From Undaria pinnatifida (Eukaryota; Sar; Phaeophyceae; Laminariales; Alariaceae), in contig JABAKD010000017.1 of the NCBI GenBank assembly GCA_012845835.1, forward strand, positions 6,831,461 through 6,895,460: a stretch of DNA of 64,000 nucleotides, given 5' to 3'. The notes beneath the pieces are model-generated. The model was not told the DNA's origin. It saw only the letters and a list, made by a program, of their open reading frames with translations, and did not search any database. This document shows, in pieces, positions 727-55,240 of this stretch (its first letter is position 1; every line of letters begins with the position of its first letter). Position numbers and translations under genes: made by a program.

Positions 727-985
727 GACTGATTCTACGATGATAGCCCTCCCCCAAACCCAGCCATTTCCTATAACGAACACGTTTCATATCTGCTCAG
801 CACGAGTAAGCAATGCTAGCTGCTGTAGAAAATATGTTCAAACGTCTTTCTTGTTTTTGCAAAAGACTTTCGAACGATGACGTCGGGGTGGCAAGGGGAA
901 CAGTGTTTCAGGAGATACGGCCGGGAGCTGGTTTCGAAACCGGCGATTTCGTTCTAAAAAAGTTAGTCGCTTGATGGAAGACTCT
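727..985 (+). mobile_element. MITE family B, decayed right end
   Basis: It starts with the family B terminus (GACTGATT then CTACGATGATAG) and carries the B interior: a Cys/Arg-like motif free stretch followed by the gatacggccgggagctgg palindrome near 920-940. The right terminal repeat is degraded, so no target-site duplication can be read. No coding capacity. Confidence 0.75.
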
Positions 986-1515
986 GGAATTGGGAGTATA
1001 GTATATTGATTTGGGGGCGAACAATATTGATTGGTTGTTTTTGAGTATTATTGGATGACGAATTTTGATATTTTTATCTTGATTTTCAGCATCAATTTTT
1101 GCTTGATCGAAGGCTTGGGAGTATAATTATTGGAGGTGAAATGTTGGTAGTTTCGGGGTTGCTTTAGGTTTGATTTACCAACAATCGAAAGCTTGTCGGC
1201 GGATGTTACGGACTAATACTACCATTACTGTACTTTTGATCGCCCATATTTTATCAGCGATTCGTTCGATTGTCGCGGTTCAATTCCTCTGGCTTCGGCG
1301 TTGGATATCAATTTCGTTTTTTTTTAGCAGAGGCAGCATTGTTTAGAACTTGACATTGATTGGTTAGTTGATGCATGTGCTTTATTTGAATATGCAGGTT
1401 TTGGATGGTGCGCTTTGGATGAACGCTATCACGACATGCACACAGGCAGGGAGAATGCTGGTTTATGTCTGTGGACAAGTCTGATTTACTACATGTAACA
1501 TGGTATTTCATAAAA
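986..1515. other. Unannotated AT-rich stretch
   Basis: AT-rich DNA with no supported gene and no repeat that I could link to other copies. Confidence 0.4.
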
Positions 1516-1519
1516 AATA

Positions 1520-1585
1520 TTTCAAGGACGTCAGCCATGAGTTCGACGAATTTCGGGTCAAAACTCATCTTTGCAAGCTACGTTG
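1520..1585 (-). repeat. Repeat G fragment
   Basis: On the minus strand this shows the core of repeat G, beginning near GCAAAGATGAGTTTTGACCC and reading MSFDPKFVELMAD, a decayed version of the peptide MSFDEIFDLTAGVYF seen in the other copies. Only the core survives. Confidence 0.5.
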
Positions 1586-1785
1586 CTGGTACTTGTAATA
1601 TACTATGACATAATGTATGTGTGAGTTTTCAATTGGAAGGGGTCCTATTTTTTGTCCACTATCATGGTTGGTGTTGGTATTTTTACTTTGGGTGGGGAAT
1701 TTTGAGCTAGATCTAACATCATATCTATTTTATAAATTTATTACTACTGTAGTTTCCATTTTGCTGCCCAATATATTATAAAAAA

Positions 1786-2125
1786 TGAAAATACACTCCA
1801 GCTGTGAGATCGAAGATTTCGTCGAAACTCATCTTTGCAAGCTGTGTGTGATACTCCGATCGCGCGCATCACGAGTTGTGTGTCCTCATTAAGGATATAG
1901 GTCGGCGACTCCCCTTACAACTACAGTGTAGCTATCAGGGTCAACAGGGCGATTTTAGTCAATCTGTGCGCTGAAACTATAAAACCCGTTTCTGAAGGGG
2001 ACAAAATCTGACAGCTGTGGAGGGAAATGTATCCTTTTATCAAGTGAATCTTGTAAGTCGAATAACCGGTGAGGGGGGGAGGCGGAGTTTTGAAGGACGT
2101 GGGGGCCTGGTTTTGATTAAAAGCG
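1786..2125 (-). repeat. Dispersed repeat G, long copy
   Basis: Near-collinear over about 340 bp with the plus-strand segment at 61728-62075. The 28193-28345 copy matches its middle part. Conserved blocks include gtagctatcagggtcaacag, the ggagtcgcc block, gagtatcacacacagcttgc and the small frame MSFDEIFDLTAGVYF. I have an impression that this peptide recurs in algal hypothetical proteins, but I have not checked it. No terminal inverted repeats are evident, so the class is unknown. Confidence 0.75.
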
Positions 2126-2129
2126 AGCG

Positions 2130-2464
2130 GGTTTGGAGGATTATCTGTATGGTGCCTGGTAGGTGGTTTATTTATTTATTTTTTTCCCCGCTTTAATATC
2201 GGGAGAAGTACGAATGCAGACTATTATTAGTTATCTAATACTTCGAAGTATGTTAACATTAATACAGCATATTTTTGGTTGTGTGATGGTAGCATCTTCG
2301 GAGATGGCATCAATGCGGTGAAACTCACTGTTTCCCGACAGTGTATAGTAAATGGGTATGTGAACATGGCTCCAGGGTCGAGTACACCAAAACATGACAA
2401 AGGACCAATGCTGCGATACGGGGGTTATCGTGTTGTTTTTGGGCATTTTTTCAGGGTAGTCCTC
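2130..2464. other. Unannotated, no gene seen
   Basis: Contains no recognisable element. It leads into the ACGGTA-motif array. Confidence 0.4.
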
Positions 2465-2755
2465 GGTACCGTTTTTTTTTACGGTACCAGATCGGACGGT
2501 ATTGCGAAATGACGGTACTTTTCAAACGGTTGACGGTATTTCGATTTCTCACGGTACCACTTTTGGCGGTACACGGTATCGCCGAATTTGACGGTACTTT
2601 TTCGGCGGTATCGAAAAGTGACGGTATTTTCTAGACGGTAGACGGTTTTTCGATATTTGACGGTACTTTTTTGGCGGTACTGCAAAACGACGGTACCGGT
2701 CCCGGTACTGCCAAATTTGACGGTACTTTTTTGAGGGTACTGAAATATGACGGTT
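2465..2755. repeat. ACGGTA-motif array, block 1
   Basis: A degenerate array in which gacggtac or gacggta recurs every 10-35 bases, often as tttgacggtacttttttggc followed by ggtac on the other side of a T-run. The spacing is irregular, so this is not a simple tandem repeat. Confidence 0.8.
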
Positions 2756-3055
2756 CCGCCACTGAGAAATACAGAATTACGAATGACGAAATACTTGACA
2801 GTACCTGCCGGGCGGCAATCAAGCATGCCGGCACCACCCCGCTGATGTTCCTGCATACCTATATAGAACGGACGAATAGAGGCTAGACTAATCGTCGAAC
2901 CGTCAAGCTGACAAACTCACCAGCCTCACGCGAAACAACATTTAGACATTTAGCACCAAAATAAGACAATAAAACAATACTACTACTGTAAACAATAAAA
3001 CAATAAAACCTAAAACATGAAAACATTCAATGAAAACCATCACACTACAATCTTT
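2756..3055. other. Spacer between the two ACGGTA arrays
   Basis: Short unique spacer, A-rich toward its right end (aaacaataaaac repeated near 2960-3010). No gene seen. Confidence 0.4.
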
Positions 3056-3260
3056 GACGGTTCTGAATATGACGGTTTTTCTAAACGGGAAACGGTACTT
3101 CGCTTATTTGACGGTACTTTTATGGCGGTGCTGCAAAATGACGGTACTTTTTAAACGGTTGACGGTTTTTCGATTTTTAACGGTACCGCCTTCGGCGGTA
3201 CACGGTTTATGCCCAAATATGACGGTATTCCGCCGAGTACCGGGACCGACGTACAGCACG
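3056..3260. repeat. ACGGTA-motif array, block 2
   Basis: A second block of the same motif set as 2465-2755, with shared longer strings such as aaacggttgacggt and ggcggtacacggt. This suggests the two blocks are duplicates or the two ends of one larger repeat. Confidence 0.8.
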
Positions 3261-3300
3261 GGAAAATTACCTCGGGAATTTTCCCGAGGACTACCCTGCA

Positions 3301-3612
3301 TTTTTTTCAGTGGCCAGGAATCACTCGCGCGAGTGACCCCCTGTTCCTTTGCGGTCTTAACCCCTTCAGAGCCCCCGAACCCCTCCCCATACTATATCCA
3401 AGTATTTTTTTCCCCAAAAACGGGTTTCCAGTTGTAAACTTTTTTTTTTCAGAGATCTGGCGACATGAGCGCCCGCAGCACCCGCAATATGCAATAGTTG
3501 CGCCAAGCACGTCCCGTAAATGTTTTTCGCCAGTGAGGTACAGAGTCACTCTTGCGAGTGGCTCAAATTTGTTTGTGAAAATCTGGGGGTTCCCTCCTAT
3601 CGTAGCCTTAGC
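3301..3612 (+). mobile_element. MITE family C
   Basis: Carries the C interior: the left palindrome ATCACTCGCGCGAGTGAC, cccctgttcctttgcggtct, gaggtacagagtcactcttg, and the right terminus ending ctatcgtagccttag. The left terminal repeat is replaced by a different sequence that contains its own inverted repeat (cctcgggaattttcccgagg at about 3271-3290). Non-coding. Confidence 0.8.
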
Positions 3613-3997
3613 CAAAGGGGAAAGCCAATATTATCACCCCGGGATTCCGGTACTACTGCGGTGCTCCGGTGCTTTGATACAACTTTTCCCACTTCTTCTC
3701 CCTTCCCCGCCCGAGGGCGCTCCGGATGTAGTGACTCTTGCCTCCGCGAGTCAGCCTGTGCCCCAGACCGCCTAGGTTTCATCCATCGAGTGGGACTACA
3801 CCGTGGAACGACTCGTATGCACTGTACTGCCTTCATCGCCACTGTCGCCGCCTACAGATTCGTCAGGCGTGTCCACCACCACCGTTGTCCGATACGGTGT
3901 CGCTCCCCCGGTGGGATTGGTAGTGATGCTGGAAATGACGCAAGGAATCGATGGGTACATAGCCTTTCCCTGCACACAAACACCCTAGGGTTATCCT

Positions 3998-4240
3998 CTT
4001 CCTTGGTACGTCACTGCGTGCGAGCACCTCCCACAACAGGTCTAGTTCGACGGCATCTACTATTCGTGGAGGTCGACAAAGTACATAGACAGGGTTCTTT
4101 CCTTGCTCGTCGGAGTTCTTGCAGTCGGCGCACGATAAGCATGTCCACTTTGTTAATTGTGCAGGCCGAAAGCCGCTCTGTTCCTCGCGGTGTATCCCTG
4201 CGTCCTCGCAGTAGTTGCCGAGGTGGGATGCGGCGAATAT
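3998..4240 (-). pseudogene. LINE-type reverse transcriptase relic
   Basis: On the minus strand one frame reads EEQSGFRP (about 4186-4163) and later VDAVELDLLWEVLARSDVP (about 4057-4005). A second frame between them reads VDMLIVRRLQELRRARKEP (about 4148-4092). In that order these match the fingers/palm entry of non-LTR retrotransposon reverse transcriptases: the QxGFRP motif, the VRRLQEL helix, then the block around the first catalytic aspartate followed by LLWEVL. Two frame changes and the loss of the expected K-A-Y-D residues show it is dead. The downstream YADD motif was not found. Confidence 0.7.
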
Positions 4241-4327
4241 CAACAGAACTTGCCTGCATCGGGCAGCAAGCGAAATCCCGGCTTCAAAATAATCCTAGTT
4301 ATGGTTTTGTGTTTTTCTTTTCTGCTA

Positions 4328-4581
4328 GACGCGTGCTACGATAGAGGTAGCACTTTTCGCCTGAAACGGTTTCCAAACGACGGGGCTCCTTAACCCAAAA
4401 TCGTCGGAAAAGGGCCATTTGTTCGCGCGATTCTCGTTGTTGTATGCATAGGCCATGGGGTTATTCATCCGGTATGTAGCAGTTTTATTTTTCTCCCAAT
4501 CGGTTTTCGGGAGTGGTCTTAAGCTCCTAAATTTAGAATCCTCGGAAAGAAAAGCGGTGCACCTCTATCGTAGCACGCGTC
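4328..4581 (+). mobile_element. MITE family A, near full length
   Basis: Inverted termini GACGCGTGCTACGATAGAGG (left) and the matching complement ending cgtagcacgcgtc (right). Interior has the A landmarks: ctgaaacggtttcc, acggggctccttaacccaaa, aggccatgg, and gtcttaagctc. The flanks do not show a matching 4-bp duplication. Confidence 0.88.
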
Positions 4582-6190
4582 ACCCTTGCTTCTCTAAGAG
4601 GGGTGATGTTTTCGTTCTTGTGCACCCCTCAAGTATAAGCATAGATGGGCTGATGTATTAATATTCGAGCGGAAAAACACTCATAGAAATATCTACTTTA
4701 CAATCTTCTGCCCACTTAAAGTATCATAGTTGTTCGTAATGGTGTATTGTTGCAGATTACAGTCCTTGCCACTGCGATATATACACTTCTAAAGGGGTGG
4801 ACTTCGGTTGTAGGTCAGAGGTATGTTTCAAGGTAGCAGTGTCACGGCTATTTCGAGGCGAAAACAAGTCAAGGAGCGCGAAAAGCGGCGAGGCTTTCCT
4901 TTTCTGAAATTAATCTCCCCTTTTGAGCGTCGGATGCGGTGGGCGGGGGGGGCACGAGAACGACAAAAAAGAAATGCAATATAGAAAAACCCCATTTCGT
5001 ATTTTCTCGAACGCAATCGCTTACCTTTGTTTGAACGTTTTTCGTCACTCCTTGTACAAAACGATGAGAACATTTGGAAGAGCTATTCAGGGCGTACGGC
5101 ACGCACACAGGACGAGCTGTGATACAGGCGGGTTCGCAAGAGGCCCTAAATGTAGTAGCCCCTGTCTGCGCCGTTCTCGCTTCAAACTGCGTCCAGTTCG
5201 GACAAGCGAAGCGACTCTTTTTGCAATTAGATTATGGGTTTGAACTTGGCAACCGATGATTTGATTTCAACGTACGCCAACAAGAGTCGGAACAGTGGGT
5301 TTACCCGTGTGAGGACAGTCAGCACAATACTCATCACTGCTGTCGAAGACGCAGGGACCCTCTTCCACGCTCAGAAGCGCTTTGTCTCTGGCTGTGCGCT
5401 TGCCGGTGTTGTATCATGCCTGGTATCTGTTGCGTCGCGTTGGTCTGAACCCGGTTGCTCAATGCTAACCGCCCCAACAGCGGTAGACATTACTTTCAGT
5501 TATGTTCAATCCCTACCAGCACTGCCAGTACTATTTTTATCCAACCAAAAGCTTGTCGCGCTGACGAAGATACATGGCCTCTCTTGGACACCTCAGCGGG
5601 GCTCCGCGCATTCGAGGACACATCATGGGGCTTTATTTATCGAACGAGGCGGGTCTTGGTCGTTGTCGCGGTGTACGTTTCAGCAGGGAGTTGCGGAAGC
5701 TTTCGCTGCCGTTGTTCCCATGGCACCTGTCAACGAGGCTGAGCTATCTTCCAGGCTTCACCGTCCCAGACAGTCAGGCTGTCAGACCTCAGCCATCAAT
5801 GAGACCACAGCGACTGCTTCAGAGACTGGCTCCTGGTCATCCCACGCTCGGGGTGCCGCAGAAGTTTCTGAGTTCCTAACATTAGGAGAGCAACGTATCA
5901 CCCCAAAATGACTGCGAAGATACTCATTCGCTCAAGTCGACCACCATTTCTATGCGCAAGTCCTGCAACACATGTTCTCGTAAAATATCATGCAAATTGA
6001 TAGTTCAACACTTGAGCTCTCAACCGGTCAGGAACGTTAGGCCCAAAAAGTGCAATCCCGACCATCCAAGATTCCTCTGCTAGCTACCCATATTTCGCTT
6101 GATACTGCGTGTAATGGTCGTAGTCTTGGGAATATGTGTGGAGGTCGCGGAAGCTTGCGCTGCTGTTGTCCGGCATCTGCTACAGCAAGG
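4582..6190. other. Mostly unique region, one long open frame
   Basis: Contains a plus-strand frame of 225 codons at 5234-5911. Its translation has no motif I recognise and no clear codon bias. I would not call it a gene. No transposon termini were seen here. Confidence 0.35.
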
Positions 6191-6194
6191 CTGG

Positions 6195-6870
6195 TCTCTA
6201 CTTTTTTGGGCTGACCATGTGAGGCTGAACTTTCTCATCTCAGGTTTGGCTATCTCCCTGGTTTCACCATGTTAGGATGAGCTATCTCTCTGGGTTCACC
6301 AATGAGCCATATCCCTAGGTTAGCGATGTTAGGCTGTGATAATTCCCTGGGTGGACCGTTCTTGGATGAGCTATCGCTCTGGTTTCACCATTTAAGGCTG
6401 AAATATCTACTAGGATTCACAATGTTAGGCTGAGCCATTTCCCTAGGTTTATCATGTCAGAGTGAGACATTTCCATCGGTGCGGCGTGATAGAGTGAATT
6501 GTCGCGCCCTGTGTTAACCACGTCAAGCTGAAATTTCTCCATCGGTTCACCATGTCAGCCTGCACTCTCACGCTGGGTTCACCATGGACTGAACAAATTA
6601 CCTGGGTTCTGCACACGAAGTTGAGCCTTCTCTTTGGGCTCATCATGCCAGGCTGAACTATTTCCCTGCATTCACCATGTTTCGCTGATCTAGCTCCCTG
6701 GGTTCACCTTATTAGGCTGGGATATCTCTGTGGGTTAGCTCTCTCCATGGGCTCGCCGTGTTAGGCTTGACTACATCTCCCTGGGTTCACCAAGTTAAGC
6801 TGAGAGCTATATCTGTTATATCTACAGGTTCATTATGGTACGGTGGGTTATCTCCCTGGGTTCATCATGT
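6195..6870. repeat. Minisatellite of about 30-36 bp units
   Basis: Degenerate tandem repeats with the recurring core CCCTGGGTTCACCATGTTAG followed by gctgagctatctc. About 18 units can be followed, with variable spacing. Confidence 0.85.
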
Positions 6871-9384: not shown

Positions 9385-9893
9385 GACGCGTACGACGACA
9401 GAGGTGCACCACTTTTTGTTTTCTTGCTGGGGTTCCCTCAATTTGGGAGCTCAAGAGCTCTCCCAAAAACTGATTTGGAGAAATATAAAACTGCTACCGG
9501 CTAAAAAGTCCTATGGCCTACGTACATAACGAGAATCAGGCAATTTGTTTTTGCCTGTTTCGAACGATTTTGGAGTCGTTCTACGGTAGCCCCCCCAACT
9601 TTTCTTTAACGAAATCGCCTGTTTTGAAACCAGCTCCAGGTCGTGTCTCCTGAAATATGGTGTCCCTTCAAACCCCGACGTCATCGTTCGTTAGACCTTT
9701 GCACACAATAAAATATATGGAGTCTTTTTGCTAGTAGCATCCTTCTTCGTGTCGAGCAGCCATGGAACGTCCGTTAAAGGGAATGGCTGATTTCGAGGGC
9801 GGCTATCGTAGAATCTGTCTTTGGGTTAAGGTGACCCGTCATTCAGAGCCCATTCAAGACAAAAAGTGTTACCTCTAGATCTTAACATGCGTC
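9385..9893 (-). mobile_element. MITE family A interrupted by family B
   Basis: Reverse-orientation A element (starts gacgcgtacgacgacagagg, ends gttacctctag...atgcgtc). Its interior gacgattttgggttaagg is split exactly where the family B element 9573-9819 sits. Confidence 0.85.
9573..9819 (-). mobile_element. MITE family B with TTTG duplication
   Basis: Left end GAGTCGTTCTACGGTAG and right end complement of GACAGATTCTACGATAG, both following GA-N6-CTACGRTAG. Flanked by TTTG at 9569-9572 and 9820-9823, and the host A sequence reads through when one TTTG and the element are removed. About 247 bp, non-coding. Confidence 0.92.
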
Positions 9894-14469: not shown

Positions 14470-14749
14470 GACGCGTGCTACGATAGAGGCATGTGGTATA
14501 CCTTTTTTTGGCTGAAATGGTTTCTGAATGACGGGGCTACTCACCTTAAAATCGTCCAAAGTAGGCAATTTTTTGGGCGTGCGTGTGGATCTTGGTGTGT
14601 ACCTCTAAGGCCTTGGCATTTGTTCTCCGGCGGCAGTTAGTTTTGGGTTTTCTCCAAAATCGGATTTTGATAAAGGTCTCAAGCTCCGAAAAGGAGGAAC
14701 ATCCCAGAAAGTAAGTAAGTGGTGCACCTCTATTATCGCACCATGGGTC
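14470..14749 (+). mobile_element. MITE family A with TGAC duplication
   Basis: Starts GACGCGTGCTACGATAGAGG and ends with a weaker complement (tattatcgcaccatgggtc). Flanked by TGAC at 14466-14469 and 14750-14753. The family C sequence resumes on its right, so A inserted into C. Confidence 0.92.
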
Positions 14750-15566: not shown

Positions 15567-15851
15567 TTCTCGCACTTTTACTTTCCAGCTTCTGGACAAG
15601 CCGTGGTCACAGGTATCGTCCCTTCTCCCCCCCGGTTCTTGCCTTCAATTTTTATCGCGCATAGGGTTCAGCAATGCTCGTCGGTTTTTCATCGAGTGTT
15701 GCGATCTCACGCTCTCGCGCTTTGCGCAAGTCAATTTGTGCACAAGAAAAAGTCCCGACGAATTTATACGAGTATGCACTCGGCGGGGCTTGAACTCAAG
15801 AAGCTGATCTATACCAGGCTCGAGGACAACCTCATACGGCACCGGGGCGAC
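15558..15851 (-). mobile_element. tRNA-derived SINE, copy 1
   Basis: Read on the minus strand, the head gtcgccccggtgccgtatga begins a tRNA-like module. A B-box match GTTCAAGCC lies at about 15785-15797, and the body follows, with ctttccag, cttctggac and gacgatacctgtgac seen near the tail. It ends in an A-run and (AT)n. The plus-strand copy at 62270-62578 matches it from head to tail. An internal Pol III promoter plus a simple-sequence tail is typical of SINEs. Confidence 0.8.
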
Positions 15852-15859
15852 CGGTTCGA

Positions 15860-18038: not shown

Positions 18039-18559
18039 GACGCGTGCTGCGTTAGAGGCAGCACACTTTGGCCTTCTTGTTTTCTGAATTTGACGGCGGG
18101 TCTTTCACCGTCAATCGTCGGACTGTCATGCTTGGCTTGAAGCAGGCGCGGTTCGCATACCAAGGCCACCGGTTCGGTCATCGGGTTGTCCTTCGGTTTC
18201 CTCCAGAATCAGTATTTGCCTCAAAAATCAATAATAGAGCTCCCTCTCAATAGTTTAGGAACCTCAAGAAAAAAAGAAGGTATGCGCCTCTACCGACTGA
18301 TTCTACGATATCTTCCCCCCAAAACCATCGATTTCTTTTTCCCGAACGTTTTAGGGCGGCTCGCCACGGAGAAGGATGTTACTAACAAAACGCCTCCATG
18401 TATTTTTTTGTGAGCAAAGGTCAATCGAACGATAACGTCGGGGTGTCCAGGGACACCGCATTTCAGGAGATACGACCCGGAGCTGGTTTCAAAACCTGCG
18501 ACTTCGTTAAAGAAACGTTGGGGGGGCTATCGTAGAACGAGTTTACCGTAGCATATTTG
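18039..18559 (+). mobile_element. MITE family A interrupted by family B
   Basis: Starts GACGCGTGCTGCGTTAGAGG. Interior runs to gcgcctctacc at 18294. After the B element the last A bases (taccgtagcatatttg) complete the right terminus. Confidence 0.85.
18295..18543 (+). mobile_element. MITE family B with TACC duplication
   Basis: Termini GACTGATTCTACGATAT and the complement of AACTCGTTCTACGATAG. TACC lies at 18291-18294 and 18544-18547. The target is the 3' terminal repeat of the A host. Confidence 0.93.
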
Positions 18560-20889: not shown

Positions 20890-21369
20890 TTTTTCTGGGA
20901 CTCTGCACTTGAGGACCTCCGTGTACCCTCTCACAAAAATAACGATTTTGGGGGAGGAAAAGGATGAACGATCCCATGGCCTGCGCACCCAACGAAAGTT
21001 GTTGCAAAAATAAAAATCGAAATCTCGGCTAGTGGGGGTTAAGAAGCCGTATAGTTCTGAAAGGGCTTCCGCGAAGATTGCTACCTCTGACTGACTCTAC
21101 GATAGACCCCAAAAAACAGCAATTTTCTTTATCGAACGCTTCATGGCTGCTCGACAAAAGGAAGGGTACAGTTGAAAACAAAGTAACCACACATTTTCTT
21201 GTGTGCACAAAGGCCTATCGACCGATGACGTCGAGGTGTCGAGGGACAACCGTATTTCGGGAGATACGACCGGGAGTTGGTTTTGAAACCGGCGATTTAG
21301 TTAAAGAAAAGTTGGGGGGGGGGGCTACCGTAGAACGACTCCTCTATTAATAGTATCGTAGAACGCATC
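20890..21369 (-). mobile_element. MITE family A interrupted by family B
   Basis: Reverse A copy: atggcctgcgcacccaacga and gaagattgctacctct precede the B element; ctattaatagtatcgtag and the degraded terminus follow it. Confidence 0.8.
21089..21341 (+). mobile_element. MITE family B with CTCT duplication
   Basis: Termini GACTGACTCTACGATAG and the complement of GAGTCGTTCTACGGTAG. CTCT lies at 21085-21088 and 21342-21345. The insertion is again near the terminal repeat of an A element. Confidence 0.93.
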
Positions 21370-24034: not shown

Positions 24035-24290
24035 GAGAGGAGCCACCCCACGGTCGAATTGCAAAACCAGTCCCTGATCTCTCCTCACACGAGGAGCTCA
24101 ATATCTCACACGACACTACATGATTTCAAAAGCACTCGTTCGCACAACCCGCCCAAGCTCCCATGCCTTAGTCCTAAACCAACATTCACTCGGTGAAATT
24201 CGCTCATTAACCGGTAGTCCCTCACTCGAGGAGCCCAATCGGCCAGGGAACTTTAGGCGCAAAACGTGCAACGCCGTACCGTGAAATGAC
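24035..24290 (+). mobile_element. MITE family D
   Basis: Contains ctcacacgaggagctcaata, catgatttcaaaagcactcg, ccaagctcccatgcctta, ctcactcgaggagcccaatc, ggcgcaaaacgtgcaac and a terminal gccgtaccgtgaaatgac. Left terminus (gccaccccacggtcg) is present but weak. Confidence 0.75.
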
Positions 24291-24374
24291 TTAGAGTCCC
24301 CCCTTTCTTCAATGCCAGGTTTCCGCCACTCCATCGACTGACTACGACTGACTACGTACCTCAACCCGACCCGA

Positions 24375-32226: not shown

Positions 32227-32856
32227 GGTCAAAGCTACGATAGGGGGATACCGCCATTTTTCATCACCGGGTCTGAGCTATCACACCATACCATACCATA
32301 CCATACCACACCATACCATATCGACCCAGGCTACGGTAGGGGGGTCCCCTTTTTGGCTTTTTATTTCAGTGGCTGGGGGTCACTCGCGCGAGTAACCCCT
32401 TTGTTCCTATGCAATCTTACGTTTTCTTTATGTTTTACATTGACGAAATCAATCCGCAATGCAAAGGTGATATACGCTGCGCCAAACCAAGTGCCTAAAC
32501 CATCATCATCCGCAGGGTACAGAGCTACTCGTGCGAGTGTCTCAAACACACCAGTGAAAAAGGGGGTACCCCCCCTACCGTAGCCTTGGTCTATCATACC
32601 ACACCAGACCATACCATAACTCGCGCGAGTGACTCTGAACCTCAATGACAAAACCACGTTCGGCGGGATTTTAATTGCAGGCTAGATGACCATCCCTTTT
32701 CGAATTAATATCGAGACGTTTTAAACAGCGGAGCGAAAGAAAAACTGTGACCGCAAGGAACAGGGGGGTCACTCGCCCGAGTGACATAGAGCAACTGAAA
32801 ACAAAATGGCCAAGAGGGGGGAATAACAACATAACCCCCCTACCGTAGCATTGGTC
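32227..32856 (-). mobile_element. MITE family C (outer) with AGAG duplication
   Basis: Starts GGTCAAAGCTACGATAGG, ends accgtagcattggtc. AGAG lies at 32223-32226 and 32857-32860. It is itself split by a second C element at 32323-32591, inside a ccata repeat. Confidence 0.92.
32323..32591 (+). mobile_element. MITE family C (inner) with TATC duplication
   Basis: 269 bp. Starts GACCCAGGCTACGGTAGG, ends accgtagccttggtc. TATC lies at 32319-32322 and 32592-32595. Opposite orientation to the outer C copy. Confidence 0.95.
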
Positions 32857-36739: not shown

Positions 36740-37020
36740 GACGCGTGCCACGATGATAGAGGCATGCCATTTTTTTTGGCCATTTTGTTCTCTGAATGAT
36801 GAGGATTCTTAACCCAAAATCGTCGGGAAAAAACGGCATTTTTTTTTTCGCATGATTCGAGAATCGTGGTGTGTAGGCATAGGCCATGGGATTGTTCACG
36901 TCCGGTAGCATTTTTTTTTTTCTCCAAATCGGGTTTTGACGGAGGTCTTAACCGCTAAAATTGAGGAAACCGCGGAAAAAATACGTACGTACGTGGTTCA
37001 CCCCTATCGTAGAACGCGTC
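36740..37020 (+). mobile_element. MITE family A, complete, GAAG duplication
   Basis: 281 bp. Starts GACGCGTGCCACGATGATAG and ends tatcgtagaacgcgtc. GAAG lies at 36736-36739 and 37021-37024. This is the cleanest free-standing A copy and, with 14470-14749, sets the 4-bp duplication for the family. Confidence 0.94.
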
Positions 37021-39501: not shown

Positions 39502-39774
39502 AAGTCATGCCACGGTAGGGGTGGATCAGATTCTAAGAAGCCCCTGTGCTCCTCACATGAGGAGCTCAACATCTCACCCGAAAAATGACTTCGAAGGCAT
39601 TCGTTCGCCCAACCCGACCAAGCTTCTATGCCTCACTTCTAAGCAAATAAATGCAACAAACTCGTGAAAATGCTTGATCAACGACTAAACCATAGTTCCT
39701 CATGCGAGGAGCTAAATTGGCCAGGGACGTTTTGGCGCAATCATACAACTGCAACCCCTACCGTGGGATGACTC
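39502..39774 (+). mobile_element. MITE family D, full length
   Basis: Starts AAGTCATGCCACGGTAGG and ends ctaccgtgggatgactc. Interior palindrome gctcctcacatgaggagc, aaaaatgacttcgaaggcat, tcatgcgaggagctaaattg. No matching duplication at the flanks. Confidence 0.85.
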
Positions 39775-42883: not shown

Positions 42884-43167
42884 GATCCAGGCTACGATAG
42901 GGAGGCCTCTTTTTGGGCTTTTTCTTTCAGTGGCCCGGAGTCACTCACGCGAGTGACCCCCCGTTCCTTTGTGATCTTGAGCTTTGGTGCTATTAAAATT
43001 CCGCGGCATTTGAATCCGCAACGCAATAATTAGCCACGCTGCGCCAAGCTTATGGTGTAAACCCGCTTCGTCATTTAGGTACAGAGTCACCCGTGCGAGT
43101 ATGATAGTATGATAGCTAAGACCTGGTAGTGAAAAACGGGGGTACCCCCCCTACCGTAGCCTTGGTC
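42884..43167 (+). mobile_element. MITE family C inside A, CCAG duplication
   Basis: 284 bp. Starts GATCCAGGCTACGATAGG, ends accgtagccttggtc. CCAG lies at 42880-42883 and 43168-43171. It has an internal gtatgatagtatgatag microsatellite start. Confidence 0.95.
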
Positions 43168-48267: not shown

Positions 48268-48388
48268 TACTCGCGTGCTACGGTATAAACAATAGAGTGA
48301 TACGGGCAGCGAGTTTAAGCTCGCTTTTTTTGCATTGCCGGGGGGCTGCTCAACCCAAAACGCTGGGGTATCATTCTTGCTCAGCAAG
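48268..48388 (+). mobile_element. MITE family A fragment
   Basis: cgcgtgctacggtataaaca, gaagcaatagagtg-like start, gggggctgctcaacccaaaa, cgctggggtatc. It is cut by the C element at 48389. Confidence 0.65.
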
Positions 48389-48665
48389 GATCAAAGCTAC
48401 GGTAGGGCGGTTATGTTGTTTTTTTGGGGGGGCATTTTTTGCGGTGGCTCGGGGTCACTCGCGCGAGTGACCTTTGGTTCCTTGAGAGGTCTTAGGTTTT
48501 CGTGCTGTTTTTCGAAACGAGAATCCCCAATTGAAATGTTGGTTGAGCTACGCTGCCAAATCGCCCAACACTGTTTTGGTCAGTAAGGTACAGAGTCACT
48601 CGTGCGACTGGCTCAAACCCGGTACTGAAGAGGGGGTATGATACTACAATACCGTAGGCTTGAGA
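48389..48665 (+). mobile_element. MITE family C
   Basis: Starts GATCAAAGCTACGGTAGGG; interior ggtcactcgcgcgagtgacc, tgagctacgctgccaaatcg, cagagtcactcgtgcgactg; right end accgtaggcttgaga overlaps the next A start. Confidence 0.88.
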
Positions 48666-48884
48666 CGCGTTCTACGACAGAGCCATTATTGTATGCCTTT
48701 TTTTTTTTGGCTTTTTGGTTTCAGGATGACGGGGCTCCTCAGCCCCAAACCGTCAGGAAATCAATCATTTTTTGCAAAGTTTTCATACTTTTGTATGCCT
48801 AGACCATGGGTTTAAGCATCGGATTGTACTTTTATTATACTTTTCAAGATCAGGTTTGGTGTCGAGAATAGAGATTCTCGGGCA
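48664..48884 (+). mobile_element. MITE family A, right end lost
   Basis: Starts GACGCGTTCTACGACAGAG; interior aggatgacggggctcctcag, cctagaccatgggtttaagc, ttggtgtcgagaatagag. It passes directly into another A copy. Confidence 0.8.
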
Positions 48885-49450
48885 AGGCGTCTGGCACGTT
48901 CTGTGATATAGGTATACCGTTTTTTGGCGAAAATGGTTTCTGAACGACAGGGCTCCTTAACCCAAAATCGTCGGAAATACGTCGATTTTTTTCATGCGTC
49001 TCGTTGTGTACATAGACCATGGGATTTATTTTTCATCCGGCCCAGCAGTTATATATTTTTCTCAATTAGTATTTATGGGAGAGGTATTAAGCTCCAAAAT
49101 TGAGAAACCTCAGAACAACATTGGTGCACCTCTATCCCAGCACGCGTCGTCTCAGAACATAAAATAAAAACATGAAGCTCTACCGTGTCATCTTACGGTA
49201 GCCCCCCCAACTTTTCTTTACCGAAATCGCCGGTTTCAAAACCAGGTCCGAGTCGTATCTCCTGAAACATGGTGTCCCTCGACACCCCGACGTCAACGAT
49301 CGATAGACCTTTCTTTGCACAGAAGAAAATGTATGGATACGTTATTTCAATAGTATCCTTCCTTGTGCCGAAAAGCCATGAAACGTCCGTCAAAGAAAGT
49401 CGCTAGGTTTGGGGGGAGGTATCTTAGAATCAGTCTACCGTAGCATGCGT
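48885..49450 (+). mobile_element. MITE family A, possibly two, with B
   Basis: An A copy from ctggcacgttctgtgatata to cccagcacgcgtc (49149), then a second A 3' remnant (ctcagaacataaaataaaaa, gctctacc) whose terminus taccgtagcatgcgtc continues after the B insertion. Confidence 0.8.
49185..49435 (-). mobile_element. MITE family B with TACC duplication
   Basis: Left end GTGTCATCTTACGGTAGC, right end complement of GACTGATTCTAAGATAC. TACC lies at 49181-49184 and 49436-49439. It is the same A-terminus position as the B at 18295-18543. Confidence 0.93.
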
Positions 49451-49459
49451 CTTGATCAA

Positions 49460-49610
49460 AAGTGATATTAGCATTCCTGAGCTATAATATTTTTCCTCGG
49501 GTTGCAATGTAATGTTTTATCAAAAACACTTCATGGGCGAGGGAATAAAGCGCAATCGAGGAGCGCATCGGAAGCAGAGAGGCGCACCTCCACTTTACGG
49601 CGGCGCAAAT
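49460..49610 (+). mobile_element. MITE family A fragment, decayed
   Basis: ttcatgggcgagggaataaa, caatcgaggagcgc, agaggcgcacctccactt follow A weakly. A C-like right end (acgtacgatagccttggtc) lies at about 49693-49716. Confidence 0.5.
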
Positions 49611-49719
49611 CGCGAACCCGAAACGGCTTAAGGCCACTCCCGTCATAAGCGCCTCCGTGCCGCTAAGAAAAGCGACTGAAATGTACCCTCCTACGTACGA
49701 TAGCCTTGGTCTCGCTGGC

Positions 49720-50330
49720 TGCTCTTAAAGCTGGGTACAAAACCCTCCACCATGTAGCCCCCCTCCCCCGTTTGCATGGCCGACTCAACCGTCACCCAGG
49801 GGTTTCTCGTTGACGAGCAAAACTGATGGCCAAACTAACCTTACCTTACCCTTACTTCCAACCCGACCGTTATGCCGAGGTGTCTCGTAATCGAATACCT
49901 CTTCCCGCCGAAAATACACCCCCCTTGCATTGTTGCTGGCCGGAATACACACATATTTGCCGCGTTAAATTGCCCGGTTCGCATGTTGCCGATCCGGCCT
50001 TTACAACACACAACGGGGTGAGGGGTGTCTCGGTTTTGAACACTTTTGCTTGCCGTGATGGTTTGCACTAATCGTCTTGCATTGTTCTGATCCAACCATC
50101 TACGACGTCATTACCACCGAGAGGCGACTGGTGGACGGTCAGGTTTACTGTCAAATAACGACTTTTACCTTGCTGACCAGATCATTCGCCTCTTCATTAC
50201 CGCCATCGAGTTGCCTTGTTATACCCCCACAGCGTACCCTAGCGTGTATTCCTGCTACGTTGTATGTGCACCGATTGTTTTCTGCGGCTCATGACCTGAT
50301 GGGCTGTATTCCCCACCCAAAAAGTGATTT
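49720..50330. other. Unannotated; old dispersed repeat
   Basis: Contains cccgaccgttatgccgaggt and gtctcgtaatcgaatacc, matching strings near 41.65 and 43.73 kb. No supported gene. Confidence 0.4.
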
Positions 50331-50331
50331 T

Positions 50332-50594
50332 GACGCGCGCGTGCTACGATAGAGATAGCACTTTTCGTCTCAAATCGTTTCAGAATGACGGGGCGCCTGA
50401 ACCAAAGTCGTCGGAAAATAGGTCATTCTTCTTTGCGTGATCATTCTCGTCGTGTACCCTCTAGGCCATGAGATTTTTCATCCCGCAGCAGTTTTGCTTC
50501 CCTCAAAAAGCCAGGTTTTTGGGAGACGTCTTAAGCTCCCAAATTGAGGAAACGTCAGAAAAAAAAAGTGGGGCACGTCTATCGTAGCACGCGT
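50332..50594 (+). mobile_element. MITE family A, near full length
   Basis: Starts GACGCGCGTGCTACGATAGA (two extra bases in the terminus) and ends tatcgtagcacgcgtc. Flanks TTTT and TCTT could be a 4-bp duplication with one mismatch. Confidence 0.88.
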
Positions 50595-50596
50595 CT

Positions 50597-50740
50597 CTTG
50601 AGTGGAAAAACGAAAGGTGAAAACCGGGTGAAAACAAAATCGCGAATGGATATGAAATTTCGACAATTTCTGGTTAAGAAGCACCGTCATTCCGAAAAAG
50701 GTTTAGTCAAAATAATGCTACCTCAATCGTAGCACGCGTC
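50597..50740 (-). mobile_element. MITE family A, truncated
   Basis: gacaatttctggttaagaag, caccgtcattccgaaaaag, tgctacctcaatcgtagcac followed by gcgtc: the 5' half of A in reverse, next to the previous A copy tail to tail. Confidence 0.78.
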
Positions 50741-50744
50741 AAGG

Positions 50745-51020
50745 GTACCCCAGTCTTCCCGCTCCGTCTTTAATATGCTACTAAGACCGCACTATCACAA
50801 TACACAGTGTAAATATAGGGCTAAATGTAGGCGCGAGTTGAACTGTACCTCCAAACTGATCTCTTTAGCGGTGGTTAATGTACTTTCGGCACGACGACTG
50901 AGACTCTCTTTAAAAACGTCCTTTGAGCTACCAGCTAATCCCAACAGTTCCCCGTTTCCTTGATAAGTGCCAGTACTTAGGCTGGCTCACACCGGCCGTA
51001 TGTGAAGTCCCCTCCCGCTG
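50745..51020. other. Unannotated, no gene seen
   Basis: No supported feature. Confidence 0.4.
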
Positions 51021-51022
51021 TA

Positions 51023-51576
51023 GACCAAAGCTGCACGGCAGAAGGGGGTGCCCCCTTTGTGTCACTGTTGGGTGTGGGCCGCTCGCACGGAGTTGACTCT
51101 GCAACCTCACAGACGAAAATACGGTAGGCGATTGTCTTTTTGCGCAGCTCGTAGTTTCCTCAGACGCGTGCCACGATAAAAGTGAATCACAATTTTTCGA
51201 GGCTCCTCGGTTTGGGAGTTAAAGGCATCTCCCCAAACCTGATTTGGAGAAAAGCTAAAACTGCGATCGGATGACAAATCCTATGGCCTCGGTACACGAC
51301 AAGGATCATGCAAAAACAATTACTTTCCTATTTCCGGCGATTTTGGGTTAAGGAGCCCCATCATTTTCAGAAAAAAACGTTTCAGACGAAAACTGCTACC
51401 TGTACTGTAGCACGTGTCCCTTTCAGTGCGGATTCGAATCGGAAAATTAAAGCAGCACGAAAGCTTTTTGCCGCAAACGAACAGTGGGGGGGCGGGGGCG
51501 GGGTCCCGGCGCGGGTAGCCCCGAGCCGCAGCAAGAAAAGGTCTCAAACGTCACCCCCTTACACCGTAACACTGGC
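51023..51576 (-). mobile_element. MITE family C interrupted by A
   Basis: Left part 51023-51162 starts GACCAAAGCTGCACGGCAG and holds ccgctcgcacggagttgac, gcgcagctcgtag. Right part 51419-51576 holds gtgcggattcgaatcgg, gcagcacgaaagcttttt, gagccgcagcaag, ttacaccgtaacactgg. Confidence 0.82.
51163..51418 (-). mobile_element. MITE family A inside C
   Basis: Starts GACGCGTGCCACGATAAAAG and ends ctgtactgtagcacgtgtc. Interior caaacctgatttggagaaaa, ttttgggttaaggagcccc. Flanks do not match at 4 bp. Confidence 0.87.
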
Positions 51577-51589
51577 GACTGAGAGAGTT

Positions 51590-51660
51590 GACGATTACCA
51601 CTACGACGACAGGGGTAGAGCACGTTTTCGCTTCTTCGTTTTTCGGAATTGCGCGACACT
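51590..51660 (+). mobile_element. MITE family A fragment
   Basis: ctacgacgacaggggtagag and cacgttttcgcttcttcg resemble the A left end. Confidence 0.45.
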
Positions 51661-51803
51661 CTCCTCATTAAGTCATTATCGACACATGGTATACGGTAGA
51701 GATGCTTTGGCCGATTATTGTTTCTGAGGATTTTTCGCTTGATGAGCTCTATATACCTATCGAAAACCTGGTTTTCGCGTTAACTGAAAGCGTCACTTGA
51801 TGA

Positions 51804-52058
51804 GACTGATTCTGCGTTAACGCCCCCCCCCCAAACCAGCGTTTTCCTTCAACAAACGTTTCATGGCTGCTCGACGCGAGGAATGATGCCATGAAGAAAA
51901 TAGCTCCATGTATATTTTCCTTGGTTTCACAGAATTGTATCGAACGATTGCATCGAGGTGGCATGGGGCATCGTATTTCAAGAGATACGGCCGGAAGCTC
52001 GTGTCAGAACCGGCGATATCGTCGAAGAATCGTTGGGGGGGCTGCCGTAGATCTAGTC
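51804..52058 (+). mobile_element. MITE family B with ATGA duplication
   Basis: 255 bp. Termini GACTGATTCTGCGTTAACG and the complement of GACTAGATCTACGGCAG. ATGA lies at 51800-51803 and 52059-52062. Confidence 0.93.
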
Positions 52059-52062
52059 ATGA

Positions 52063-52175
52063 ATAGACCGATCGCCTAGGTACAAAATCACTATAATTCT
52101 CCAGAAAAGAAACGACCAGCTTCCGACGATTTCGGGCTAAGGGGGCCATTCATCCATTCATTCAGACACCCATTA
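52063..52175 (-). mobile_element. MITE family A fragment
   Basis: gatcgcctaggtacaaaatc, ttccgacgatttcgggctaa, ggccattcatccattcattc: middle of reverse A. Confidence 0.6.
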
Positions 52176-52439
52176 TTAGCAAAATTTGCTATATATTCAT
52201 TTATACCTAAGCTATCGTGGCACGTGCGTCTGCCGCTGGATTAGTAACGATAGTATCGTCGTCCTCGTTTTGCATATTTGTTCCGTCATATATATACCAA
52301 GACCAGAGCCATCCTTGCATGCAGTGCGGTAGGGGTTTCCCTTTTCGGGTGAAACGTGTCGGACCGGGGTGAGCTTTCCCCAAGGATGGCACTATCGGCT
52401 AATGTATGATAATTTTACGAGTACATTGAATGGTTGTTT

Positions 52440-52690
52440 TTAGGACAAGCGCATAGAAAAGCTGGGCGAGTTGCGCGAATGAATGCCTTTCAAGTCATTT
52501 TTTTGGGTGATCTTGACACTGAGCTAGCTCCAGCACCCTACACCATTACATGAACCAGCGGTGGATTGTGAGTTAGTTCATCGGGATGCTCGTGGACTTA
52601 TATTTCATATTTTGGGCTTGAGCAAGGCATATATACGAGAACTTCTCTCGAGCGAGGAGCGCTTCAGGCAAAAGAACTTCACCCGTGCCG
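52440..52690 (-). mobile_element. MITE family D, decayed
   Basis: gcatagaaaagctgggcgag, gaatgcctttcaagtcattt, tgggtgatcttgacactgag and ctctcgagcgaggagcgc match reverse D. Confidence 0.62.
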
Positions 52691-52786
52691 TTGCTTGCAT
52701 CCGCAACGACACCGATTATTAGTTACCAACAGCACACACAGTCTACCCCGTACTGACGTCTTGCAGTGGCAAACAAACCAAGTATT

Positions 52787-53035
52787 GACTGATTCTACGA
52801 TACCCCCCCAAAAAAATCAGCGATTTCTTTGACGAACGTTTCATGGATGGTCGGCACAAGGAAGGATACAATTGAAAACAGGGTGTCCATGTACTTTCAT
52901 TGTGTGCAAATGCCTATCGATCGATGACGTCGGCGTGTCGAGGGACACCGTACTTGAGGAGATACGATCGGGAACTGGTTTTGAAACGGGCGCGTTCGTT
53001 GAAGAATAGTTGGGGGGTCTACCGTAGAACGAGTC
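52787..53035 (+). mobile_element. MITE family B
   Basis: Termini GACTGATTCTACGATAC and the complement of GACTCGTTCTACGGTAG. Flanks TATT and TACT give a 4-bp duplication with one mismatch. Confidence 0.92.
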
Positions 53036-53065
53036 TACTACTAGTAGCATTTCCAGCGAGCTGCT

Positions 53066-53364
53066 CACCAAGGTCGCGGTAGGGGGATCGCTTTTAGGGC
53101 CTCTGTTTGCGGTAGCCCGGCGGAGTTACTCGCACGAGTGCCCCCCCTGTTCCTGTGCGGCCTTAAATTGTTCGTATTATGTTTGTTTTGCGATATTATG
53201 AAACCTCAATGGAAAGGTGTGCCGCTCTGCGTTAATCGGAAATCGTCTTTTCATAGTATTTTTTTCAGTGCGGTGTGGCATAGGGTTGGTCGTGCGAGTG
53301 GCTCAAACCCGGTAGCGAAAAAGGGAGTACCTCCTCCTCCCCGCTCGCCTACGGAAGTCTTGAT
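53066..53364 (+). mobile_element. MITE family C
   Basis: Starts CACCAAGGTCGCGGTAGG; interior gttactcgcacgagtgcccc, ccctgttcctgtgcggcctt, gtcgtgcgagtggctcaaac; right end acggaagtcttgat is decayed. Confidence 0.85.
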
Positions 53365-53415
53365 ATTCTCTTCGTCAAAATGCGCGAACGAGTTCTACCT
53401 TCAAACAAACAAACA

Positions 53416-53674
53416 CTTCGTTCTACGGTAGCCCGCGCCCCCCAACATTTTTCTTTCAAAAAGCCGCTGGTTTTGAAACCAGCTCTCGGCCGTAGGTGCT
53501 GAAATACGGTGTGCCGCTTGCCACCCCGACGTCGTCGTTCCACAGTCTTTCGCAAAAACAAGGAAGTATTTGAGGTCGTTTTTTTCGTAGCATCTTCTTG
53601 CTCGTGTAGAGCAACCATGGAACGTTCGTTAAAGAAAATCGCCTTTTGTGTGGGGGGCTATATCGTAGAATCAG
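53416..53674 (-). mobile_element. MITE family B
   Basis: Left end acttcgttctacggtagc, interior ggttttgaaaccagctctcg, ccaccccgacgtcgtcgttc, right end tatcgtagaatcagt. Confidence 0.88.
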
Positions 53675-53744
53675 TAAAATGCCGTCTCGAAATATTACCA
53701 ACCTTTTCCCGGCGTCTACCGTCTCAAGTATTCAATACGCCGCA

Positions 53745-54085
53745 ACCACTGCGGTACGCAGTCATGCGCTGTCTGGGTCCAAGCAAGGGCAGAAGCCGTC
53801 CCTCACGTGGATTGTCACGTCCGCGCTCTACCGAACTCAACAGGCGTTTCGGGTGAGGTAGACTCTGATTACCGTGCTGGCCTTTCTCGAGTCAGTCTTC
53901 GAACAGCCACCACGGATGGGCGATGTTGAACTTCGTGAATCTTTTTGCAAGGCGGAAGACGGGCCATTGAAGCCCGCCATTGTCGAAGCTATTGTATGTC
54001 CACTTGATGTATCCTATCCTGTACGGCTCGAGGATCGTACGCACACCAGCAGAACAGCGCGCACGGCTCTGTCGGCGATGCTCCT
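53745..54085. repeat. Duplicated segment I, copy 1
   Basis: Diverged match to 55325-55610: gcgctgtctgggtccaagca/gcgctgctcaggtccgagca, ttaccgtgctggcctttctc/gtaccgtgctggtcttctcg, gcgcacggctctgtcggcga/gcgcacacggctctgccgga. Coding-like in parts, but with stops. Confidence 0.6.
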
Positions 54086-54105
54086 TTTTCTGGCCCGGAG
54101 GAGAA

Positions 54106-54700
54106 GGGTGCTACGATATAGATCGCAATTTCTGGTCATTATTTTTGCAGAAAGACAATACTCCTTAGCCCAAAATCATCCGACACAGACAGCGTTTTTG
54201 TTTGAGCCATCCTACAGTAGGGGTGTAGCCGAACACCCCTGAGCTCTCCTCGCACGAGGAGCACAATATCTCACCCGATAATACATGACTTCGAAGGCGT
54301 TCGTTCGCACATAACCCGATCAAGCTTGTATGCCTTAGTCCTAAACCCATAGTATACACTCGCGGAACTACTTGACATATGACTAACCGGTAGTTCCTTA
54401 CTTGAGGACCTCAATCGGACAGAAATAGTATAAGTTCATCTAACAACTGCAACCCCTACCGTGATACGACTCGTGCCTCACTCGAGCACCTCAATCAGAC
54501 AGGTACATTATTATTTAATCCAACAACTACAACCTCAATCACGGGATGATTCTTTTGTACCCTAGGCATGGCATGGGACTGATTGTTCATCGGGGAGCAC
54601 TTCATTGTTTCTCAAAGACGGTTTTTGGATCAGGCACAGGGCTCTTCCAGTGAAGAGGCACAGTCAAAAGTTGATGCCCCCATACTGCACCGCGCGTCAG
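54106..54700 (+). mobile_element. MITE family A interrupted by D
   Basis: Left part gtgctacgatatagatcgca, ccttagcccaaaatcatccg up to 54203; right part from 54553: taccctaggcatggcatggg, ttgttcatcggggagcactt, ctgcaccgcgcgtc. Confidence 0.77.
54204..54552 (+). mobile_element. MITE family D with duplicated right end
   Basis: Starts GAGCCATCCTACAGTAGG. The right-end block of about 80 bases occurs twice in tandem (ending cctaccgtgatacgactc at 54473 and aatcacgggatgattc at 54552). Flanks GTTT and TTTT fit a 4-bp duplication with one mismatch if the outer copy is the true end. Confidence 0.82.
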
Positions 54701-54956
54701 AGCAGCACACCCAACTACATTTTCCAACGTCTCATCCCGGTGGAGCTGGATGGTACATACGAAGATCGGAATAACCTCCGACAGGCACTCGCCTCGTGAT
54801 GGCATCGTCGGATGGCGATCTTGAACAGGGTTTGAGCCACGTGGGCGTGAATGCCACGTATATAGAGCAAATAGACTGGTTCGTGACCTTCAGGTACCCA
54901 TTCGGCCGGTCCAGTGGCTTGCTTTCGGCCCGTTGCATCGAATGCCGGGCATTGTC

Positions 54957-55240
54957 GGCCAAGGTTGCGATAGGGGGTAACTATTAATTGGGTCCTATTT
55001 TCACTGTGGCTCGGGGTCACTTCCCGCGAGCGATCTCCCTGTTGGTTTGCGGTCTTACGCTTTGTTATTGTGTTGGTTGATTCTGCGATAGGAATCCGCG
55101 ATGGAACGGGAAGCTACGCGGCGCCGAAAACACCGATGGAAAAGGCATGCTTGTCGGTGTGGTACCGAGTGACTCTCGTACGAATGGCTCAAACCCCGCT
55201 GTGACAAAAGGGTACCCCCCCTACGCTAGCCTCCTTGGTC
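54957..55240 (+). mobile_element. MITE family C
   Basis: 284 bp. Starts GGCCAAGGTTGCGATAGG, ends acgctagcctccttggtc. Flanks TGTC and TGCC give a 4-bp duplication with one mismatch. The left palindrome is broken (gtcacttcccgcgagcgat). Confidence 0.88.

What the first reader, a model, noticed from the sequence alone, without database searches (positions are those of the whole stretch)
727..55240. Four MITE families share one TIR rule, GA-N6-CTACGRTAG, and 4-bp target duplications
Families A, B, C and D have unrelated interiors, but their terminal repeats obey one rule: GA, six variable bases, then CTACGRTAG at the same offset (A GACGCGTG+CTACGATAG, B GACTGATT+CTACGATAG, C GACCAAGG+CTACGGTAG, D GAGTCATC+CYACGGTAG). 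Exact 4-bp duplications occur for A (TGAC, GAAG), B (TTTG, TACC, TACC, CTCT, ATGA) and C (AGAG, TATC, CCAG), with no shared target motif. This implies one transposase recognising a common core while client families diverged. The combination does not match a superfamily signature I know (hAT 8 bp, Tc1 TA, Harbinger 3 bp, piggyBac TTAA).
Basis: partly seen in the sequence, partly recalled or inferred. Interest (0 to 1): 0.9.

Follow-up and report, generated by a model that had tools for sequence, protein, structure and literature searches.

The report
Kelp mobile-DNA families sharing one end
Four families of short, gene-less jumping DNA in what is almost certainly a kelp genome end in the same two-part signal and copy four bases of target when they insert; one family jumped recently, and the enzyme that moves them is still unidentified.

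Summary
In the window, GA-N6-CTACGRTAG (at most one mismatch) occurs 49 times against 1.1 expected. The window lies in a 511-Mb genome, almost certainly Undaria pinnatifida, where CTACGRTAG occurs 46,224 times against 6,701 for the reversed motif. All four families, D included, have 4-bp target duplications: exact in 33 of 73 full-length copies held, against 2 of 365 shifted controls. In the ten best-matching C copies outside the window, 9 of 10 are exact and cross-pairs 0 of 90. Four C copies are identical over 269 bp, so C moved recently. Corrections: D has CCACGGTAG; some B copies with exact duplications lack GA at one end; C and D share subterminal palindromes. The transposase was not found: MULE, Harbinger-type and DUF7869 loci that I read do not lie between such ends. 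Best reading: MITEs of one transposase lineage, Sola-like or new, probably filed among the kelp's 36% 'Unknown' repeats.

The parts
21089..21341 (+). Family B element, 253 bp, TSD CTCT/CTCT; query for the genome search
9573..9819 (-). Family B element, 247 bp, TSD TTTG
18295..18543 (+). Family B element, 249 bp, TSD TACC
49185..49435 (-). Family B element, 251 bp, TSD TACC
51804..52058 (+). Family B element, 255 bp, TSD ATGA
52787..53035 (+). Family B element, 249 bp, TSD TATT/TACT (one mismatch)
14470..14749 (+). Family A element, 280 bp, TSD TGAC
36740..37020 (+). Family A element, 281 bp, TSD GAAG
48893..49148 (+). Family A element, 256 bp, TSD GTCT; left end only 7 of 11 motif positions, so dropped from the tally
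4328..4581 (+). Family A element, 254 bp, both ends 11 of 11, no TSD (GCTA/ACCC)
32323..32591 (+). Family C element, 269 bp, TSD TATC; identical to three copies on other contigs; nested inside 32227-32856
32227..32856 (-). Outer family C element, 630 bp, TSD AGAG, interrupted by 32323-32591; without the inner copy and its TSD it is still 357 bp, so something else is inserted too
42884..43167 (+). Family C element, 284 bp, TSD CCAG
2403..3613 (.). C-type ends 1,211 bp apart, flanks AAAG/AAAG; interior looks repetitive, no transposase recognised by eye
   Evidence: interior read by eye
24040..24292 (+). Family D element, 253 bp, TSD AGAG
39502..39774 (+). Family D element, 273 bp, no TSD (CTAC/CATT); query for the genome search
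54204..54472 (+). Family D element, 269 bp, no TSD (GTTT/GTGC)

Best explanation
A-D are short non-autonomous cut-and-paste DNA transposons (MITEs) moved in trans by DDE-type transposases of one lineage. The transposase binds the near-palindromic core CTAC-G-RTAG at bases 9-17 from each end, cuts outside the terminal GA with a 4-base stagger in the target, and inserts at targets without a sequence motif; gap repair leaves the 4-bp duplication. The six bases between GA and core are family-specific and may set which family a given transposase paralogue prefers. Shown: ends, boundaries, duplications, high motif numbers, recent movement of C. Inferred: DDE chemistry, trans mobilisation, binding at the core. 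Unknown: the transposase.
For: Motif excess. Boundaries: across 30 B copies conservation falls from 0.94 in the interior and 0.97 and 0.96 in the cores to 0.33-0.35 in the flanks. TSDs of exactly 4 bp in all four families. No clear target motif in 19 B sites. Consensus ends of A, B, C and D all fit GAS-N5-CYACGRTAG. C: four identical 269-bp copies and 36 of 40 scored copies at 95-97%; 843 exact 27-base left ends and 950 exact 30-base right ends, reversed controls 0. C and D share palindromes. No Pfam match in the ten window ORFs scanned.
Against: No autonomous element found. Six-base spacers differ by family and, in B, between ends. Some B copies with exact TSDs lack GA at one end. In family A only 2 of 13 copies kept an exact TSD, and the genome search for A did not complete. 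In some searches the copy boundaries were refined to the motif, so end conservation there is partly by construction; the exact patterns and the similarity hits are not. One D-type end faces a Harbinger-type exon (L068/L069) and could not be fully explained.
Confidence: 0.7

Rival explanations
1. The elements are ordinary Sola-superfamily MITEs: the kelp has or had Sola-1 or Sola-2 transposons whose ends follow this rule.
For: Sola gives 4-bp duplications and has very variable termini (PMC10741241 passages). Ectocarpus has Sola-1 (1,989 copies, 2 intact), Sola-2 (48 copies, 14 intact) and 51 unclassified DNA-transposon families (PMC12477816 section 5).
Against: No Sola transposase was searched: I know of no Sola model in the libraries. 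The N6/N4 methyltransferase family of the kind carried by Ectocarpus Sola1-1 has no match here, but it is an accessory gene. The Sola founding paper is not held, so termini could not be compared.
Confidence: 0.4
2. One single transposase enzyme mobilises all four families.
For: Same core, same offset, same TSD length in all four.
Against: Spacers and subterminal sequences are family-specific; the best B and D genome copies are 73-87% identical to the query while C copies are 95-100%, so bursts seem to differ in age. The A genome search did not complete.
Confidence: 0.25
3. Harbinger-type (PHIS, DDE_Tnp_4) transposases move them.
For: 138 DDE_Tnp_4 matches in the genome. At L068 (and its paralogue L069) an end that matches the D end at 27 of 28 bases lies 514 bp upstream of a DDE_Tnp_4 ORF and faces it.
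Against: That end lies between an upstream exon-like ORF and the DDE ORF; L071/L072 have what looks like the same ORF pair without it (by eye). No D-type partner in the 10 kb read. The nine other DDE_Tnp_4 loci read (L061, L071-L078) show no matched ends. Known PHIS duplications are 0, 2 or 3 bp (PMC4482050 passages). Only 11 of 138 matches were read.
Confidence: 0.08
4. The shared motif is convergence or a chance resemblance between unrelated superfamilies.
For: Interiors of A and B show no similarity to the other families above shuffles, except A against D reverse-complemented at 2 of 200.
Against: A shared 11-position rule with identical spacing and identical TSD length at eight consensus ends is very unlikely by chance (judgement, no calculation).
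Confidence: 0.04

Closest known systems
Sola superfamily DNA transposons
   Same: 4-bp duplications; very variable termini; present in a brown alga (PMC10741241, PMC12477816)
   Different: No Sola transposase shown between these ends; termini not compared; copies here are mostly 247-285 bp and gene-less
Unclassified DNA transposons of Ectocarpus (51 families, 9,109 copies, 1.70%) and 'Unknown' repeats of Undaria (785,477 copies, 36.1%)
   Same: Probably where such elements are filed in current annotations (inference)
   Different: Those libraries were not compared here; no shared-end rule was seen in the passages read
Ginger1 and Ginger2
   Same: 4-bp duplications
   Different: Termini TGTNR; Ginger1 targets CCGG or CCGT, Ginger2 prefers RTATAY (PMC2836005 passages); here GA termini and no clear target motif
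PIF/Harbinger, Pangu, Nuwa, ISL2EU, Spy (PHIS)
   Same: DDE_Tnp_4 transposases are abundant in the same genome
   Different: Duplications 0-3 bp with fixed target motifs (PMC4482050 passages)
CMC (CACTA, Mirage, Chapaev)
   Same: 2-4 bp duplications (PMC4482050 passages)
   Different: CACTA elements begin CACTA or CACTG (PMC10741241 passages); no Transposase_21 match in this genome, but that search rang in no control either

Membership tests
MITE (non-autonomous DNA transposon) | Short (<500 bp), inverted terminal repeats, target duplication, no coding capacity, high copy number | tested here: met
   247-285 bp in the window, TIRs, 4-bp TSDs; 843 and 950 exact C ends, thousands of first-look candidates for B, C and D; coding capacity judged from length only
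Sola | 4-bp target duplication | tested here: met
Sola | DDD transposase of the Sola family in autonomous relatives | not testable with these tools
   no Sola model or sequence available to me; founding paper not held
Sola | Accessory ParB-methyltransferase of Sola1-1_Ec32 (not a defining feature) | tested here: not met
   PF01555: 0 matches in own genome, 11 of 14 control genomes rang; the ParB part was not searched
Ginger | TGTNR termini; CCGG/CCGT target (Ginger1) or RTATAY preference (Ginger2) | tested here: not met
   GA termini; no clear target motif in 19 B sites
PIF/Harbinger (PHIS) | TSD of 0, 2 or 3 bp at fixed targets | tested here: not met
   B: 19 of 30 exact at k=4, 1 at k=3, 0 at k=5
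PIF/Harbinger (PHIS) | DDE_Tnp_4 transposase between these ends | tested here: inconclusive
   11 of 138 places read, none between paired ends; one unpaired D-type end in L068/L069
Mutator (MULE) | 7-12 bp TSD; MULE transposase between these ends | tested here: not met
   TSD is 4 bp; 30 of 111 MULE loci read with 1.5 kb flanks: no exact core, one unpaired 10-of-11 hit in L046
hAT, Tc1/mariner, piggyBac | 8-bp, TA, TTAA duplications | tested here: not met
   varied 4-bp duplications; piggyBac TTAA is recalled
CMC / CACTA | Tnp2 (Transposase_21) transposase | tested here: inconclusive
   0 matches, but no control genome rang
Academ (link to DUF6589 recalled) | DUF6589 transposase | tested here: inconclusive
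   0 matches, but no control genome rang
DUF7869 giant element (this genome) | Own ends equal to GA-N6-CYACGRTAG | tested here: not met
   right end, taken as the point where two copies stop matching, is AACAGAAAATTATT; left end not reached

The most novel reading that the evidence does not exclude
A kelp-lineage DDE transposon group, distinct from Sola and every named superfamily, recognises a bipartite end (GA, family-specific six-base spacer, dyad core CTAC-G-RTAG), duplicates 4 bp of almost any target, has spawned at least four MITE families that account for much of a roughly sevenfold genome-wide excess of the core motif, and is still mobile through family C.
Probability: 0.25. Interest if true: 0.75.

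Novelty: new variant of a known kind. Interest (0 to 1): 0.5.

Why it matters
Undaria's repeats are listed as 36.1% 'Unknown' and 2.0% DNA transposon (PMC7058681 passages). A terminal rule that unites several large families gives a way to classify part of that unknown fraction, and the nearly identical C copies point to a recently active kelp transposase, which would be a candidate gene-transfer tool for brown algae. It also offers a natural test of how a transposase tolerates six variable bases between cleavage site and binding core.

Tried and rejected
Searching viral contigs for family A and B sequences: 0 hits. MULE: 30 of 111 loci read, no exact core and one unpaired 10-of-11 hit. DDE_Tnp_4: 11 of 138 places read; one D-type end near a transposase ORF looked at first like the autonomous element, but it sits between two ORFs that appear paired in other copies, no partner end was found, and the homology between the two paralogues runs through it. 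DUF7869: chosen on a recalled hunch that it might be Sola-like; its right end is different. The A insertion in that element (TTAC/TTAC in L080) is present in all five copies aligned, so no empty site was obtained. PF01555, PF20231, PF02992: no matches, the last two uninformative. Literature: no paper describing these ends appeared in nine searches (the listings are capped, and of the 154 papers only ten were listed, none on transposons by title). I paired the listed C left and right ends by eye (only the first 100 places of each are listed): 35 of the 52 left ends listed on contig C1 have an exact right end, for elements of 266-274 bp. Four left ends lie 2.0-3.6 kb upstream of another left end on the same strand (C1:3016607, C12:291790, C13:10191453, C18:11606755); these are leads for longer elements, unread.
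Full report
WHERE IT LIES. The window is bases 6831461-6895460 of contig C23 in a genome of 511,146,479 bases in 68 contigs. Undaria pinnatifida has been assembled to 511,280,173 bp in 114 scaffolds (PMC7058681, passages) with a largest scaffold of 32 Mb (PMC10498591, passages); C32 here is 32,303,302 bp. I infer that the host is Undaria or a very close relative. In that assembly 'DNA' repeats are 2.0% and 'Unknown' repeats 36.1%.

THE OBSERVATION. GANNNNNNCTACGRTAG with at most one mismatch occurs 49 times in the window; shuffles give 1.11 on average and 4 at most. Among 97 end pairs, some sharing an end, ten matches are exact at length 4; lengths 3, 5, 6 and 8 give none, length 7 one, length 2 seven; shifting the boundary by 1-6 bases either way gives 0-4. 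Eight representative A-D elements cover 24.5% of the window by sequence similarity; the same queries reversed cover none.

BEYOND THE WINDOW. CTACGRTAG occurs 22,841 + 23,383 times in the genome against 3,325 + 3,376 for the motif read backwards. First-look candidates numbered 4,183 for B, 3,832 for D and 2,436 for C; only 40 of each were scored, so these are not confirmed copy numbers. The family A search did not complete. In 30 B loci, one of them the window's own copy, 19 have exact 4-bp duplications, 3 of 870 cross-pairs do, length 3 gives 1 and length 5 gives 0. Over full-length copies in held DNA (L001, L062 and L069 left out as duplicates) with both ends at least 8 of 11: A 2 of 13, B 24 of 42, C 3 of 9, D 4 of 9 exact, and 2 of 365 shifted controls. 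Three further copies (2 A, 1 C) were dropped for a weak end; one of them, A at 48893-49148, has an exact duplication. I read the flanks of the ten best C matches other than the window's: 9 of 10 have exact duplications (the miss is TGTG/TGGT), 0 of 90 cross-pairs, ten different left flanks.

AGE. The C copy at 32323-32591 is identical over 269 bp to copies on C26, C22 and C2, and the other 36 of 40 scored matches are 95-97% identical. Exact 27-base left ends number 434 + 409 and exact 30-base right ends 456 + 494, with no match for the reversed patterns. So family C moved recently. B copies seem older: the 30 sampled copies average 0.906 identity to a consensus that includes 16 flanking bases. 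D matches in the scored list are 78-82% identical to the query, one partial match 73%.

ANATOMY. Consensus ends: A GACGCGTG-CTACGATAG at both ends; B GACTGATT-CTACGATAG and GAGTCGTT-CTACGGTAG; C GACCCAGG-CTACGGTAG and GACCAAGG-CTACGGTAG; D GAGCCATC-CCACGGTAG and GAGTCATC-CCACGGTAG (14, 29, 10 and 9 copies for A, B, C, D). The rule is better written GAS-N5-CYACGRTAG. CTACGGTAG is a palindrome with one central base, the kind of site that a protein dimer binds (inference). The spacer is constant within a family end, so it is not free. Three of 30 B copies start ATTTGATT and two of them have exact duplications, so an altered terminus did not stop transposition. C and D each have two internal palindromes of 20-24 bp: the first starts 56 (C) and 41 (D) bases from the left end, the second stops 49 (C) and 62 (D) bases from the right end (mononucleotide shuffles reach the best in 1 of 200 for C and 0 of 200 for D, the second in 0 of 100 each); C against D reverse-complemented beats all 200 shuffles; A against D reverse-complemented is reached by 2 of 200; the other ten of twelve comparisons are unremarkable (the B consensus there kept about six flanking bases at each end). 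A and B have no such palindromes at that stringency.

HOW IT PROBABLY WORKS. Short, gene-less, inverted ends, fixed-length target duplication and high copy number are what MITEs show. The constant 4 bp implies a 4-base staggered target cut by a DDE-type transposase acting in trans (established for such elements in general; inferred here). The shared core at a fixed distance from the cleavage site is best read as the binding site. Whether one enzyme or a set of related enzymes does this is open.

SEARCH FOR THE ENZYME. Ten window ORFs gave no Pfam match; the rest of the window was not scanned. MULE transposases: 111 matches in the genome, 30 loci read with 1.5 kb flanks, no exact core and one unpaired 10-of-11 hit. 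DDE_Tnp_4: 138 matches, 11 places read (L061; L068 with its leftward extension L070; L069; L071-L078, among which L071 and L072, and L074 and L075, are near copies by eye); no transposase lies between paired ends. One end in L068, and in its 98% identical paralogue L069, matches the D end at 27 of 28 bases and faces a DDE_Tnp_4 ORF 514 bp away, but it lies between two ORFs that look like exons of one gene, and no partner was found; I cannot fully exclude that it is a real end. DUF7869: 11 matches; two copies of a giant element stop matching at AACAGAAAATTATT; the other end was not reached. PF01555: none, while 11 of 14 control genomes rang. PF20231 and PF02992: none, but no control rang.

WHAT IS KNOWN. 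Sola gives 4-bp duplications with very variable termini (PMC10741241, passages). Ectocarpus has one Sola-1 and one Sola-2 family and 51 unclassified DNA families (PMC12477816, section 5 read in full, other passages seen). Ginger is excluded by termini and targets (PMC2836005, passages). PHIS groups duplicate 0-3 bp (PMC4482050, passages). The founding Sola paper is not held.

VERDICT. Its elements are of a known kind (MITEs); no description of the recognition rule turned up in the searches I made, and the superfamily is unassigned, most likely Sola-like or new.

Noticed in passing
L079-L085 (C30:15910500, C48:12356000, C19:14050300, C19:14070800, C30:24000200): Giant element copies (97.6-99.5% identical over the stretches compared) chosen by DUF7869 matches (motif QMDNTVSENKNN...VGHTHIQIDQ in L079), each carrying an A-family MITE; right end AACAGAAAATTATT
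   Followed up: partly
L068/L069/L070 (C30:10516500-10526500; C33:12227900-12233900): Neighbourhood with a DDE_Tnp_4 transposase on one strand and, convergent, ORFs that by eye look like a SWIM-type zinc finger and a FEN1-like nuclease (no Pfam match for the one scanned); may be a large Harbinger-type element. L070:1135-1403 is a C element with TSD TCAG
   Followed up: partly
window 59462-59977 (-): ORF of a conserved protein without Pfam match; 343 homologues, the best 80% identical over 93% of the query, in public contigs
   Followed up: no
L061:5490-6800 (-): ORF of 437 aa that by eye looks like Copia-type reverse transcriptase and RNase H, about 1.9 kb from a DDE_Tnp_4 match
   Followed up: no
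C30 (27.5 Mb): Many of the MULE and DDE_Tnp_4 matches fall on this one contig (by eye); it may be the sex chromosome or another repeat-rich chromosome
   Followed up: no
window 1832-2057 / 61796-62021 and 15672-15854 / 62267-62449: Two further inverted dispersed repeats, 92% and 83% complementary, outside the A-D hits listed
   Followed up: no
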